A stretch of DNA of 64,000 nt, taken from NCBI GenBank assembly GCA_001275005.1, contig JWZX01003318.1:1-64000 (forward strand), written 5' to 3'. The notes below the pieces were generated by a model. It was not told where the DNA came from. It saw only the letters and a list, made by a program, of their open reading frames with translations, and ran no database searches. Each line of letters begins with the position of its first letter. The stretch's first letter is position 1. Origin of the DNA: Chrysochromulina tobinii (taxonomy: Eukaryota > Haptophyta > Prymnesiales > Chrysochromulinaceae). Positions 42,355 to 47,884 of the stretch are shown piece by piece. Both the position numbers and the translations under genes were made by a program.

Positions 42355-43533
42355 TTATGACGTTGTGGCGCGTCCCACATTCGAGACACCCAACTTCTTG
42401 AGCAGGTGGTCGCCCGCGCTTACAGGCGCGTACTTTGGCGGGTGACCCTCGTCGACGCACGTGGGCATTGCCTCGATAACAGCTTCATCACGCGGTCCCG
42501 TGAAGAAGGGGATGGAGAGGCGCGGCGCGGAGGCGGCGGCGGAGCCGGGCGGAGGTTTCATGACGCGATGCACTGTCGAGCGCCACCGGCCATTCGTCCA
42601 GATCTCGTACAAGTCGCCGATGTTTACCACAAAGGCGCCCGCTGTCGGTGGGACCGCGTGCCACTCTCCTGTTTGCAGTCGCACCTGCAGGCCGCCGGCA
42701 GCCAGGTCGCCGACGTCGGCCTCGTCCTGGTGGAGGATGGTGAAGCCGGTGTAGTCGGTGTGCTCGCCGTAGCGCACCGCCGACGACTCCTGCGCCTCCG
42801 GCGACAGCGGCGGGTAGTACGCTAGCCGGAGAGAGTAATGTCCAGCCGGTGAGTAGAAAGGCTCGAAGAAATCGGCTGGCAGACCTAGGCTGGCGGCGGT
42901 GAGCTTGTGGAGTGTCTCCAGGACGCGAAGGAGCGCCGCGTAGTAAGCCGCGCCAGCCTCCTCCAGCACCGCTGGCTTCGGCTTAGGCGACTCCGGCTTG
43001 AAGATGAATGACTCAACGAGATCGGGCAAGGCGCCAGCATGGTCGGCGCCTCCGTCGGATCCGTGCTTGTCGCGCGTGCGAGATACGGCCTCGGTACCCA
43101 TGCCGGTGAAGCCGCCGAATGGGTTGCCATACGGGCCGTAGTTGTACACGTTCTTCGATGCCAGATCGTCGGCGAAGAAGCCCATTGCACCATCGCGCAA
43201 TGCTGAGATCGTGTGCGGAGGCACGCCATGGCCCGTGATGATGGCAAAGCCGACGTGCATCATCGCCGAATCCCACTGCTCGGCGACTTGACGCCGCGCC
43301 TCGTCGGCATGCGCCGCCTCGTCGACGAAGGGAGAGATGTCCACGATGGGCACCACAGCAGACGTGGTCTGCTTCACTTTATCGCCCGCACACTTGGACA
43401 GGATGTCGCAGATGCCCATGATGGGCTTAGCTGGGCGGGTGCGGAGCACCTCGGACACCGCCGCGGCTAACGCCTCCTGGACGCCGTGCGCAGCAAGATA
43501 GTCGCGCCCCGAAAGTGCCGACGAGACAGCCAT
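42355..43533 (-). CDS. 2-oxoglutarate/Fe(II)-dependent oxygenase, isopenicillin N synthase-like
   Basis: A single 392-residue frame from ATG at 43533. The N-terminal DIOX_N block reads PIVDISPFVDEA, then HVGFAIITGHGVP. The double-stranded beta-helix has the iron ligands His and Asp in GEHTDYTGFTIL and the distal His in TVHRVMKPP, and the 2-oxoglutarate-binding RxS in RLSIPFFTGP. NIGDLYEIWTNGRWRST is typical of the family. Members hydroxylate, desaturate or cyclise small molecules; the substrate cannot be told. The first 60 residues (AVSEVLRTRPAK) are extra. A DNA transposon ends only a few bases upstream of the ATG, so the native promoter and 5' leader have been displaced or the start may differ. 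Confidence 0.85.
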   Translation of the reverse strand: MAVSSALSGRDYLAAHGVQEALAAAVSEVLRTRPAKPIMGICDILSKCAGDKVKQTTSAVVPIVDISPFVDEAAHADEARRQVAEQWDSAMMHVGFAIITGHGVPPHTISALRDGAMGFFADDLASKNVYNYGPYGNPFGGFTGMGTEAVSRTRDKHGSDGGADHAGALPDLVESFIFKPESPKPKPAVLEEAGAAYYAALLRVLETLHKLTAASLGLPADFFEPFYSPAGHYSLRLAYYPPLSPEAQESSAVRYGEHTDYTGFTILHQDEADVGDLAAGGLQVRLQTGEWHAVPPTAGAFVVNIGDLYEIWTNGRWRSTVHRVMKPPPGSAAASAPRLSIPFFTGPRDEAVIEAMPTCVDEGHPPKYAPVSAGDHLLKKLGVSNVGRATTS

Positions 43534-43539
43534 TCTGTA

Positions 43540-43595
43540 CAGTGTTTGTCATAAGTCCTGACCCCCTGGGTGGGGTGGGGTGGGGTGGGGTCCGC
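43540..43595 (+). repeat. Left terminal inverted repeat
   Basis: It begins CAGTGTTTGTCATAAG and includes four GGGGT units (gtggggtggggtggggtg). It pairs with 47828-47882 and differs by one extra G. The TA target site lies just outside. Confidence 0.92.
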
Positions 43596-43641
43596 CGAAG
43601 TGGCCGATCGCGCTCTGCGCCTCTCTCGCCCCGACGTTCTC

Positions 43642-45736
43642 ATGGCGTCGGCTGCCCCGGGCAAGGCTCGATGCGCGGAGCTCTTCCCGCCCGGCAACCG
43701 TCACCTGGTGATCTTGGGCAACTTCGACGAATCGTACCGAGACCCAGCAAATCAGCCAGACCCGCCCGTGGAGTCGCAGTGGGAGGTCGTGCATGTTGCG
43801 ATCAAGTACATCACCATCAAGCGGCGTGAGGCTGAGAACGAGGGGCAGACCATCAAACTGGAGTTCGCCGCCTTCCTCGAGCTCTACGACCTCGTCAACG
43901 CGCGCGTTGTCAAAGCGAGTGTCCCCTCTAAGCCCGACGTGCGCTTGTACGTCTACTGTGATCGTCCAGGCCCGTTCGCCTGCTCGGTCCTCCAAGGTGA
44001 TGTGCTCCCGATCGAGCCACTGCGGTGCTTGCACGAGATGTCCGATGCGGTATCGGCCGTCAAAGAGGTGTTCGATGCGACTTCGGTGCCGAAGCTGAAC
44101 TGGCTGTGCTGCCTGCGTCATGTTCTCGAGGCGAGGGTGTGCCTACACGGCGGCTCCGAGCTGTATGGAGATCGCCCCTGCTCCGTGCAAGTCAAGCCGC
44201 TGGACTTCATAGGCGAGGTCTTGATCCCCGACCTGGGCGCGAAGAAGATGAAGTCTGCGGGCAAGTTCATGCCTGTGGCCACGGCGGATTCTTTGATGCG
44301 GCTACTCACGCGTGCCGAGGTGGAGTCGCTCAACCTCGCGCTCGTTGTTCGCTTCTCGAAGGGGTCCCCACCGAAGCCCGACGTGGTGCCGTCTGCGTGC
44401 GAGACCTTGGTGGACGAGCTCTCTGAGGCCTTTAAGACCACTCGCCCCGACATGATGCTGGACCTGCCGCCCCTGGCGGCTCCGGACACGTACGGTGGTC
44501 TCGGTGAGAAGACGCCGCGCACGGGCATGGGCGCATCACAGGCTCCAGCAGGCAGCAGCGGTGTGAAGGGCCGCGCGAAGCGCTCCAAGTCGGGCGAGAA
44601 GCCGAAGGCGGAGAAGAAGAGCAAGGAGAAGAAGAAGAAGAAGAAGATGGGCAGCGAGGAGCTCGAGCTCCTCGGCCAGGTTCGTGACGAGATTCTCGAC
44701 GTCTCGAAGGCGCATCGGTCGGTGGCCGGTCACTGCTCCATCCTCCTCGAGATCGTGCGCAAAATTCACAACCCCGACCACGTGCTCAAGGGCATCAACG
44801 GCGCGTATGAGAAGTACAAGCACCATCTCGAGTGCCGCATGCGCGCTCTGGACAAGACGGGCATTATGGGGGGCGACGAGAAGACGGAGCACGTCTTCAA
44901 GGCGCCCACCGACTCAAACGGCAAGAACTGCTCGCGTCTCGAGCAGTCAACGCAGGAGTTTCTTTTCCAGTCCACCAAGGTCTTGAAGATCTTCATCGAC
45001 ATCCGCCCCACGCTTTATGCAGCAGGCGCCGCTGCAGCAGCCGCAGCAGGAGCAGCAGATCCAGCAGCCCTGGCAGCAGCAGTTCCAGCAGCAGCAGCAG
45101 CAGTTCCAGCAGCAGCAGCAGCTGCTGCTGATGCAGCTGATGCAGCAGCAGGTGCAACCGGTCTGGCAGCAGCAGGTGCCGCTCTGGCAGCTGCAGCCGC
45201 AGCAGCCGCCGCCGCTGCAGCAGCCGCCGTTCTCGCAGCAGCCCTGGCAGCAGCCCTGGCAGCAGCCCGTGCAGCAGCCCGTGCAGCAGCCCTGGCAGCC
45301 GCCCGTGCAGCAGCCCTGGCAGCCCTGGCAGCCGCCGTCGACACACGAGAAGCGCTTTGGCCGTGATGGAATTGCATACTCCTTCTCGGAGTTCGTACAG
45401 TGGTATGGCGCATCGGCCAAGGATGAGTGGGGGGCTGCCGCGCTTGCCTTTCGGCAGGTTCCGACACCCCAAGATAAGCAGCAGCCGTCTGTCGACGAAG
45501 GACGGGGACAGAGCGCAGGGCCCAGCACTCCTCTGCACGATGAGCCCCCGTCCAAGCCCCCCACGGTCGGAGCCCGCGACGGTGTCGACTCCGATGACTC
45601 CGATGACGACGAGGACGACGAGGACGACGAGGACGACGAGGACGACGAGGACGACGAGGACGACGAGGACGAGTACGAGTACGAGGACGAGGACGAGGGC
45701 GAGGACGAGGACGAGGACGTGGACGAGGACGTGTAG
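43642..45736 (+). CDS. Cargo/accessory protein of the mariner-type element, unknown family
   Basis: The ATG at 43642 lies 102 bp inside the left terminal repeat. About 240 residues form a globular domain with no family I know (VILGNFDESYRDP, VVHVAIKYITIKRREAENEG, VRLYVYCDRPGPFACSVLQG). A Lys-rich, nuclear-signal-like run follows (EKPKAEKKSKEKKKKKKMG), then a helical region (EELELLGQVRDEILDVSKAH). At about 45014 (ACGCTTTATGCAG) the protein-like frame moves by +1. The old frame gives only polyalanine and stops at 45366. The new one reads a long Gln/Pro tract, then KRFGRDGIAYSFSEFVQWYG and an Asp/Glu tail built from gacgacgag units. A role in target binding or transposition is inferred only from location. 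Confidence 0.65.
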
Positions 45737-46674
45737 GACGAGTGGCCCTCATCACTCTGGTCCATTCGCGGCGCACACTCCGGGCTACCCTCGGCGGCGG
45801 CATGGAGCAGACGTCAGCACAGCGGAGGGTGCCTGCATCGAGCGCGCTCGAGGCGCGAGGCGCTCTAACACACCTACACAGTGTTTGTCACTTGTGTAAG
45901 TCATTAAATTTTAAATAGAAGAAAGGATGGTCGGTTTTTGTCGTTTCGGCAAGCCTCCGCTCCAAAAGGACAAGCGTTTGAGGCGCGAAGCCCGGCCTGT
46001 GGGACGTATCGCGGACGCCCGCCGTCTACATTAGCGAAATATAAGAGGACTGTACCCCTTTTTGGATTGGCCGATAATTCCTACAGAGTTCAAATCGTAT
46101 ATCTATTATGTCCCCCGCGCGCTTCTTTTTTGATGACTCTGTGAAATTTTATCCGAGACTTTCGTCTTGGCGCGATTCGCCAGTGGACGGTGGCGGGTGC
46201 TGGTATTGCAGTACGTCTTAGGAGAGCCCGCTGCTACCCTTTGTGGAGCGGTGATGGTCATCCGTAGGCCGAACCTACCAGCAGCCGTGCTGTCCCTAGG
46301 CCAAGGAGAAGGCCGTCGATGGCGGTCGAGACGCCCATCTCGCAGTCCTTCCATCCATCACCTTCCGCAACGCATGCGTGCCGTGCAGGTGAGTGTGATT
46401 GACCAGCTGCAGCACAGATGCACACGTGCACACTGAGTGCCGCCTCCTCTCGGGCGTCTATGATGTCGTGTGTCGTGAGCGCAGCACACGACGGGCAAGA
46501 CAATCATCAATCTAACGTAGGAACTTGAAACTTCAAGTCGCGTCGTCCACTACGTAAACTTCCGAATACTTACCGAATTCTTCTGAACTGAACGCAGAAA
46601 TCCGGCCGGCTGAACCGCCGCGCGTTCACGTCAGCGCTGTTGCAGAATTCAATCCACTTGAGCTCAGAACCACT
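45737..46674. other. Non-coding centre of the transposon
   Basis: Between the convergent stops of the cargo and transposase genes. It is AT-richer than the host genes in parts (45890-46150). No coding frame is convincing. Confidence 0.5.
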
Positions 46675-47791
46675 CTACTGTGAATAAAACCTATACTTAC
46701 AGTTATGGAAGCACATGCGTCCCGCGAGGGCGCCCGCCTCACTGCCGGCGCGGTAGACCCGGAACGCCTTGTCCAGTCCAACGCTGATATGCTGCGTTGC
46801 GAAGTCAGCCGCGTTCTGCTTCAGGAAATCGGCCAGTAGCCCAAACGCACCATTGTCGAGCGGCGAGAGGTGGTAGCAGTACGGCGGGATGAAGCGCACC
46901 TTGATATGCGTGCCGAGGTGGAAGACGTAGTCTGCATCCTTGTGGATGCTCGCATTGTCCATGATCAAGACCTTGAAGTGCGAGGCAAGGGACTGACCGT
47001 CCGCCTGAAGGGTATGGATGAGCATCGCGTCGAGTGACGCCTGCACGGACGAGCAGTACGAGCAGAGGTGTGAGAAGCGGCACGAGAAGTCACAAGAGGT
47101 GGAACAAGGGTGCGTTCGTCTCGCGTACCTGAAACGAATCAGCCTTAAACGTCCCGTCATTGAAACGCCAGTCCTCAAAACCGCGGTGGGAGACGATCGT
47201 GAGCGCGGAGACGCGCCCCCCGCGTGTCCTGAACTCGTCGCGGACTGTGGGTGCCCGACCACGCAGGCCCCAGCCGATCGTGCTACGGTAGGCTCGCCGA
47301 TCCTTGGCCGTCTCGTCGAGTGCCAAGATCTCGTCGGCCGAGAAGAAGGTCACCATCTCCGAGAGCCAGGCGCGCGCTCGATCCTCATCTCGCATAAGAG
47401 CGAGGTGCTGTATGCGCTGGCGGCACAAGTTGTGCGCGTGCAGCACGCGGCATAGCGTGCGCAAGCTCACTACCTCGCCCGAGGCGAGGTAGATAAGGGC
47501 GTGTTGTTTGCCGAGTGTTGTCGTCGGGGAGTCGAGTACACGGTTCACGAGATCGAACTCCTCATCCTTGGTGAGTGCCCTCGGGCGGCCCTGAGCTCCG
47601 CTCTTCGGCGGGAAGACGTCGCCGGTCTTCTTGAAGGTCGATAACCAGCGCTTCTGGCTCGTGTCTGAGACGTGCAGGTGCTCAGTGACCTCCCGGGCCG
47701 TCAGCCCCAGAGTAGTGCGCTTGAAAACAGCGAGCCACCGGATCGCTGCGACGCGCTTGCAGCGTGAGTCGTCGGGGAGAGAGAGAGACAT
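46675..47791 (-). CDS. Tc1/mariner/IS630-type DDE transposase, two exons
   Basis: The ATG at 47791 opens exon 1 (47791-47129, 221 codons). A GT-AG intron of 88 bp (47041-47128, GTACGC...CGTGCAG) leads to exon 2 (47040-46675). The joined protein has 342 residues, the usual size. An N-terminal helix-turn-helix (GLTAREVTEHLHVSDTSQKR) and a second one bind the ends. The catalytic residues are visible: the first Asp in ILALDETAKDRRAY, the second in VLIMDNASIHKD, and the third in PPYCYHLSPLDNGAFG, 33 residues later, so a DD33D-like triad where many relatives have Glu. No stops or frame breaks are seen. Such enzymes cut and paste DNA into TA sites, matching the flanks. Confidence 0.92.
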
Positions 47792-47827
47792 GAGAGCAGA
47801 GCGAGACGAGGAGCGCGTGACGATTTC

Positions 47828-47882
47828 GCGGACCCCACCCCACCCCACCCCACCAGGGGGTCAGGACTTATGACAAACACTG
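47828..47882 (-). repeat. Right terminal inverted repeat
   Basis: Reverse complement of the left end over 55 bp, including the GGGGT units, with TA just outside at 47883-47884. Confidence 0.92.
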
Positions 47883-47884
47883 TA

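What the first reader, a model, noticed from the sequence alone, without database searches (positions are those of the whole stretch)
43540..47882. A two-gene Tc1/mariner-type transposon with an inward-facing cargo gene
Simple Tc1/mariner elements carry one gene and are 1.3-2.4 kb. Here a TA-flanked element with 55-bp inverted ends is 4,343 bp. It carries an intact spliced DDE transposase and a second large gene of unknown family with a Lys-rich run, a Gln/Pro tract and an acidic tail. Both genes start about 100 bp inside the ends and converge, so the terminal repeats probably act as promoters. Two-gene layouts are established for PIF/Harbinger and En/Spm elements, not for this superfamily. 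The cargo may be a mobility co-factor.
Basis: partly seen in the sequence, partly recalled or inferred. Interest (0 to 1): 0.88.

Follow-up and report, generated by a model that had tools for sequence, protein, structure and literature searches.

The report
Two-gene mariner-like transposon in alga
A haptophyte alga carries a small family of cut-and-paste DNA transposons that carry a second, unfamiliar protein gene beside their transposase; a few other multi-gene transposons of this superfamily are already known, so this is a new variant rather than a new kind.

Summary
A 4,343-bp TA-flanked element (43540-47882) has near-perfect ~60-bp inverted ends and two converging genes: a spliced IS630/Tc1/mariner-type transposase (342 aa, DD33D) and a large unknown gene. 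The host is Chrysochromulina tobinii. The layout is not a one-off: a second copy with both ends (C2158, 1,209 bp, ~19% diverged on the cargo side) has the same two gene starts. Metagenome proteins include a 708-aa full-length cargo homologue (61%), a partial third cargo behind the same left leader, and ten ORFs stopping at the C2158 stop position. Corrections: in this copy the cargo frame shifts by one base near 45,000, so it is not shown to be intact; dN/dS between cargo copies is not significantly below 1; and multi-gene layouts are known in this superfamily (ciliate TBE/Tec, Fanzor1-mariner). New: the cargo's C-terminus carries a short module found in many host proteins; both ends carry a (GGGGT)n quadruplex motif; an internal end-like tip at 45878 suggests the cargo was added to an older ~2-kb element. 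Best reading: a resident second gene, probably a nuclear accessory protein; function is inferred only. New variant of a known kind.

The parts
43538..43539 (.). TA target dinucleotide, left
43540..43599 (+). left terminal inverted repeat (CAGTGTTTGTCATAAGTCCTGACCCCC + GGGGT pentamers)
43572..43590 (+). (GGGGT)3GGGG, strict G-quadruplex motif in the left end
   Evidence: one of only two strict motifs in the window
43642..45009 (+). cargo gene, first reading frame: N-terminal ~300-aa domain, Lys-rich run (about 44599-44650), then a conserved region predicted helical (residues ~338-405); NCBI model Ctob_000452 agrees with its first 434 residues
   Evidence: end coordinate approximate
45010..45736 (+). 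cargo gene continued, one base out of register: Gln/Pro tract (about 45020-45340), host-type module (45344-45442), acidic tail (about 45587-45733), stop
   Evidence: the place of the frame change is approximate
45344..45442 (+). 33-residue EKR..DG.AYS..EF..WYG...W.AA module shared with many host proteins
45878..45902 (+). internal end-like tip (13 bases identical to the outer tip, then TAAGTC after 6 bases), same direction as the left end
46318..46408 (+). fragment 87% identical to a place in contig C1705
46675..47040 (-). transposase exon 2 (D249, D283, SPLDNG)
47041..47128 (-). transposase intron, 88 nt, GT-AG (inferred)
   Evidence: P0003 and P0004 end in nearly the same read-in residues
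47129..47791 (-). transposase exon 1 (HTH, D159)
47825..47882 (-). right terminal inverted repeat with the same quadruplex motif (47833-47851)
47883..47884 (.). TA target dinucleotide, right

Best explanation
A genuine two-gene IS630/Tc1/mariner-type DNA transposon family of Chrysochromulina. The DD33D transposase, read inward from the right end, cuts and pastes the element at TA (inferred from the transposase family, the ends and the TA flanks). The second gene, read inward from the left end, is a resident element gene, not a one-time passenger (supported by copies and homologues). It most likely makes a nuclear accessory protein: a basic run for nuclear entry or DNA contact, Gln/Pro and acidic low-complexity parts, and a host-type module for contact with host machinery. 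It would act on the element's own ends, expression or silencing. This role is inferred from composition only (my estimate: about 0.35 that it directly helps transposition or expression). Internally deleted copies keeping both ends are moved in trans (inferred).
For: Two copies with both ends share the layout despite about 19% (left) and 8% (right) divergence. P0002, 708 aa, 61% identical, keeps the whole architecture in one open frame. P0042, a 267-aa ORF matching 60% of the 300-aa query at 67%, starts in the same left leader. Ten ORFs (P0048-P0057) stop at the C2158 stop position; by eye 9 of 10 contain end-derived residues and 8 have different upstream residues, which suggests one deletion-type copy spread to several sites. 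No host-gene copy of the N-terminal domain was found in this assembly. The spliced transposase reading has no stop, has near-identical relatives P0003 (98% over 65%) and P0004 (96% over 63%) in 27-member clusters, and its N-terminus shows dN/dS 0.23 against C674.
Against: Cargo dN/dS is 0.86 (window-C2158), 0.69 (window-C731) and 0.65 (C2158-C731), pN/pS intervals 0.64-1.27, 0.55-1.13 and 0.52-1.07; C2158 is broken and C731 is a relic. The window cargo has a frame change. Four of six end-bearing copies are cut by contig ends 88-359 bp inside the right end, so their left side is unseen, and no matching left ends were found on other contigs. No cargo relative was found outside this element family, while 35 more distant transposases were. 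No fold: pLDDT 46.9. No convincing Pfam, NCBIfam, PHROGs or PADLOC family.
Confidence: 0.55

Rival explanations
1. Passenger capture: a simple ~2-kb one-gene element (45876-47884) acquired a flanking cargo gene when a second left-end sequence further out was used as the end. The cargo hitch-hikes without helping the element.
For: Internal tip at 45878, expected 7e-5 times by chance in the element interior, the only non-terminal one of 5 places in the genome. The intergenic stretch is lower in GC (0.51-0.57 against 0.59-0.68 in the rest of the element) and holds a fragment matching C1705. Host-type module in the cargo C-terminus. dN/dS not significantly below 1.
Against: Layout shared by diverged copies and by P0042; P0002 keeps a 708-aa frame. 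The N-terminal domain was not found as a host gene in this assembly. The right flank just outside the element is also low in GC (0.53), so low GC alone says little. A capture origin does not exclude a later function.
Confidence: 0.3
2. Chance neighbours: the outer left end and the transposase unit are separate insertions that only look like one element.
For: Internal end-like tip.
Against: C2158 has the same left and right ends, both gene starts and TA on both sides in 1,209 bp. A metagenome ORF (P0041) carries that copy's right end with a matching host flank.
Confidence: 0.07
3. The cargo is a host-facing regulator (anti-silencing or transcription co-activator) rather than a transposition co-factor.
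For: Gln/Pro and acidic low-complexity parts and a module otherwise seen in host proteins of varied function.
Against: No functional data; composition alone cannot separate the two roles.
Confidence: 0.25

Closest known systems
Fanzor1-carrying Mariner elements (PGv-1, PUl-1; PMC3627910, passages and section 7 seen)
   Same: TA-flanked mariner-type element with a transposase and at least one further protein gene
   Different: The cargo has no convincing Pfam match; it is not recognisable as Fanzor1, endonuclease or methyltransferase
Ciliate TBE and Tec elements (PMC7325037, passages and section 8; PMC4724952, passages)
   Same: Tc1/mariner superfamily with extra ORFs; TBE ends carry telomere-like repeats
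   Different: Three ORFs, DD34E, other accessory domains (zinc finger or recombinase); here two genes, DD33D, GGGGT pentamers
PIF/Harbinger two-gene elements (PMC2836001, start of abstract in a search listing only)
   Same: Two element genes
   Different: That abstract says both proteins are required for movement; other superfamily. Here TA flanks and an IS630/DDE_3-like transposase, and need for the second gene is unknown
Mariner family 'Luffy' of the haptophyte Tisochrysis lutea (PMC5963040, 12 of 21 matching places seen)
   Same: Mariner-type element in a haptophyte
   Different: No second gene mentioned in the passages I saw

Membership tests
IS630/Tc1/mariner superfamily | TA target duplication | tested here: met
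   TA on both sides of the window copy and of C2158; an empty site was not sought or seen
IS630/Tc1/mariner superfamily | Terminal inverted repeats beginning CAGT (recalled feature) | tested here: met
   CAGTG at both ends
IS630/Tc1/mariner superfamily | HTH plus DDE/DDD transposase homologous to IS630/DDE_3 | tested here: met
   IS630 model E 2.1e-16 (60.3 bits, cut-off 100); DDE_3 E 1.2e-5 (25.6 bits, cut-off 28.6) and HTH_23 (21.6, cut-off 24.6): all below the curated cut-offs; 31 of 39 proteins found carry precomputed DDE_3; D159 invariant, D249 and D283 at 90% or more in 10 sequences
mariner (DD34D) proper | 34 residues between second and third catalytic residue | tested here: not met
   33 residues between D249 and D283
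Fanzor1-mariner | Fanzor/TnpB protein as cargo | tested here: not met
   no Pfam family at E 1 for the cargo frames and none at E 10 for P0002; the Fanzor motif itself was not scanned
TBE/Tec | three ORFs with zinc-finger or recombinase accessory | tested here: not met
   two genes recognised; no such domains
PIF/Harbinger, En/Spm | 3-bp target duplications and their own transposase types (recalled) | tested here: not met
   TA flanks and IS630/DDE_3-like transposase
Element with an obligatory second protein | second protein needed for transposition | not testable with these tools
   needs an assay

The most novel reading that the evidence does not exclude
The first Tc1/mariner-type transposon with a dedicated, obligatory second protein of a new family that recognises quadruplex-forming (GGGGT)n ends and docks to host machinery through a host-derived module.
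Probability: 0.15. Interest if true: 0.8.

Novelty: new variant of a known kind. Interest (0 to 1): 0.5.

Why it matters
If the second gene is needed, it adds a new protein family to the few multi-gene Tc1/mariner elements and gives an algal case for asking why some elements of a superfamily that normally manages with one protein keep a second. The host-type module in an element protein points to an exchange of parts between transposon and host.

Tried and rejected
Viral contigs with P0001, P0002, a 22-bp end pattern and transposase alignment A1: no confirmed relative. Prokaryote genome contigs with the end pattern and with A1: none. Phage records with P0002 and the transposase: none. Structure of cargo 1-460: pLDDT 46.9, so no fold search was made. 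PDB by sequence: nothing for the cargo below E 0.5; Sleeping Beauty E 0.26 for the transposase. Weak library hits set aside: SctB2 E 0.048 and two PHROGs at E 0.24 and 0.45, all for P0001. Rfam on the window at gathering scores: none. The C1468 hit and four acidic-tail hits (C2098, C1993, C1734, C1662) were set aside as low complexity. C1464 holds another DDE_3 match; ORFs were listed only for the 3,183-bp L055 around it, where I saw no cargo-like ORF by eye; L057 (9 kb) was fetched and only scanned for the G4 motif. An intact second gene in this copy was rejected because of the frame change. I know of no published description: paper searches, of which only part of the longer result lists was seen (for example 10 of 629, 10 of 499), and zero occurrences of 'transpos' in the main text of the C. 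tobin genome paper PMC4580454. Supplements were not searched.
Full report
WHAT IS THERE. The element runs from 43540 to 47882 between two TA dinucleotides, with inverted ends alike over about 60 bp apart from two 1-bp indels. It sits 4 bp upstream of the predicted ATG of a 2OG-Fe(II) oxygenase gene on the minus strand. The right-hand gene is a transposase: ATG 47791, 88-nt GT-AG intron, 342 aa, stop 46675. The intron choice, one of four acceptors tried, rests on alignment with relatives. NCBIfam gives IS630 (E 2.1e-16) and Pfam gives HTH_23 and DDE_3, all below the curated cut-offs. In alignment with nine relatives D159 is invariant and D249 and D283 are at 90% or more; 33 residues separate the last two. 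The left-hand gene starts 102 bp inside its end, the transposase 91 bp inside its own.

WHOSE GENOME. The cargo's first 434 residues are those of Ctob_000452 of Chrysochromulina tobinii, whose contig has 68,704 bp like C2159, the window's contig. The genome paper's main text has no occurrence of 'transpos' (PMC4580454, passages).

THE CARGO GENE. Frame one is open for about 460 codons from the ATG before it turns into a poly-Ala reading (N-terminal domain, Lys-rich run, a region predicted helical); the Gln/Pro tract, a short module and the acidic tail lie one base out of register. A homologue from a 3,051-bp ENA contig, P0002, 708 aa, has all these parts in order in a single frame: 59% identity over the first stretch and 39% over the low-complexity rest in my alignment, 61%. 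So the cargo is one long protein in the family, and this copy is either spliced, mis-assembled or frameshifted. The NCBI model stops at 435 aa. No curated family matches convincingly, no solved structure is credible, and the AlphaFold model is too weak to use.

OTHER COPIES. The end pattern has 8 matches in the assembly from 6 copies, 0 in the control. C2158 is complete at 1,209 bp: both ends, TA flanks, the cargo start (81% over 499 bp) and the transposase start (92% over 408 bp) converging, the middle lost, and a stop in the cargo. C2000, C674, C255 and C484 show right ends only, because the contigs stop 88-359 bp inside the element; C484 ends before the transposase ATG. So cargo is present at 2 of 2 visible left ends and cannot be judged in 4 of 6 copies; that no left ends turned up at other contig ends is unexplained. 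C731 holds a cargo relic; the end pattern did not match there. Metagenome proteins widen this. (only the 7,995 candidates sharing most words were scored) lists 17 proteins: P0001 and 16 others, all at E 4.3e-12 or better, though 11 of the 16 cover only 14-15% of the query. They are P0042, which begins inside the left end and leader; four C731-like ORFs (P0043, P0044, P0045, P0047); P0046; and ten short ORFs that all end at the C2158 stop position. By eye, 9 of these ten contain end-derived residues (P0057 does not) and 8 have different upstream residues. They were found because they contain the cargo start, so they do not test how often the cargo is missing. P0041 matches the C2158 right end and the adjoining host flank (86% over 94 and 90% over 106 residues), so the same insertion exists in a related alga. 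I infer a mobile family with trans-moved deletion forms.

SELECTION. Nei-Gojobori dN/dS (own script) for the cargo: 0.86 window-C2158 (139 codons), 0.69 window-C731 (92), 0.65 C2158-C731 (91); bootstrap pN/pS intervals all include 1. Transposase window-C674: 0.23 (87 codons, pN/pS interval 0.09-0.63); C674 too has a stop. The two other planned transposase comparisons did not run. Since C2158 is broken and C731 is a relic, this neither shows nor excludes constraint; the long open frames of P0002 and of the window's first ~460 codons argue for some.

ORIGIN AND PARTS. A 13-base copy of the end tip at 45878, followed after 6 bases by TAAGTC, points the same way as the left end. It is expected 7e-5 times by chance in the element interior, and with TAAGTC it is the only non-terminal one of 5 such places in the genome. 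It would bound a 2.0-kb unit holding only the transposase, the usual size of a simple element (recalled). The stretch between the genes is lower in GC than the rest of the element, but so is the right flank; it holds a fragment 87% identical to C1705 and a short repeat also in C773 and C95. I infer that the cargo was added to an older one-gene element; the C2158 copy shows that this predates their divergence. By eye the tip also lies in a short palindrome, so a regulatory or binding-site role is possible.

HOST MODULE. P0002 residues 556-620 matched two host proteins. Querying with the host form found 26 places in the genome at E 10 or better, 18 at 0.001 or better, with no stop inside any match. 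The cargo itself was not among these 26, so its version is divergent. I scanned 22 motif-bearing ORFs: 14 have a Pfam domain, of varied kinds (RWD/RING/IBR, OTU, kinase, AKAP7-type RNA ligase, helicase, G-patch/R3H and others); 8 have none. A profile from 18 of the 25 modules (7 dropped: duplicates, shorter forms and one blank) hits P0002 (E 1.5e-7) and the window cargo (E 2.6e-7); the best of the other 608 window ORFs has E 0.12. The cargo thus contains a piece common in this host's proteins.

ENDS. The only two strict G4 motifs in the 64-kb window are in the two ends. C674 has GGGGA in place of GGGGT with four G-runs kept; the right end of C2158 fails the strict motif because one run has three G. 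One unrelated strict motif was seen in the other fetched loci, in C1464 (L055, L057). This may reflect quadruplex formation, transposase recognition, or simple repeat slippage.

COMPARISON. Multi-gene Tc1/mariner elements are known: Fanzor1-mariner and three-gene viral mariners (PMC3627910, passages and section 7), and ciliate TBE and Tec (PMC7325037, passages and section 8; PMC4724952, passages, whose abstract reports dN/dS much below 1 for all three TBE genes). This element resembles those in layout but is a member of neither; its cargo matched no library family convincingly. Verdict: real, moderately interesting, new variant of a known kind.

Noticed in passing
45344-45442; L058-L082: A ~33-residue module (ErR.apDGxAYTKxEFxxfFGgtxEWdxA) occurs at 26 places in the C. 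tobinii genome, in proteins of varied domains, and in divergent form in the cargo; I know of no name for it.
   Followed up: partly
43572-43590, 47833-47851: Both ends carry a strict G-quadruplex motif (GGGGT)n, the only two in the window; a related copy (C674) has GGGGA instead.
   Followed up: partly
L021 1036-1612 (C2158): An ENA metagenome ORF (P0041) carries the C2158 right end with matching host flank: the same insertion in a related alga.
   Followed up: partly
43531-43537: The element lies 4 bp upstream of the predicted ATG of a 2OG-Fe(II) oxygenase gene and may alter its expression.
   Followed up: no
46029-46081: Short repeat also in C773 (619-671) and C95 (11029-11082), with TATTTCGCTAATG on one strand in those copies; identity unknown.
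   Followed up: no
L055 / C1464:2783-2965: A different DDE_3 transposase fragment, the only other DDE_3 match in this genome.
   Followed up: partly
C2000, C674, C255, C484: Four right ends at contig ends but no left ends at contig ends: either lost short contigs or copies with two right-type ends.
   Followed up: no
P0002: Listed with precomputed Pfam PF26933, which the library here does not hold.
   Followed up: partly
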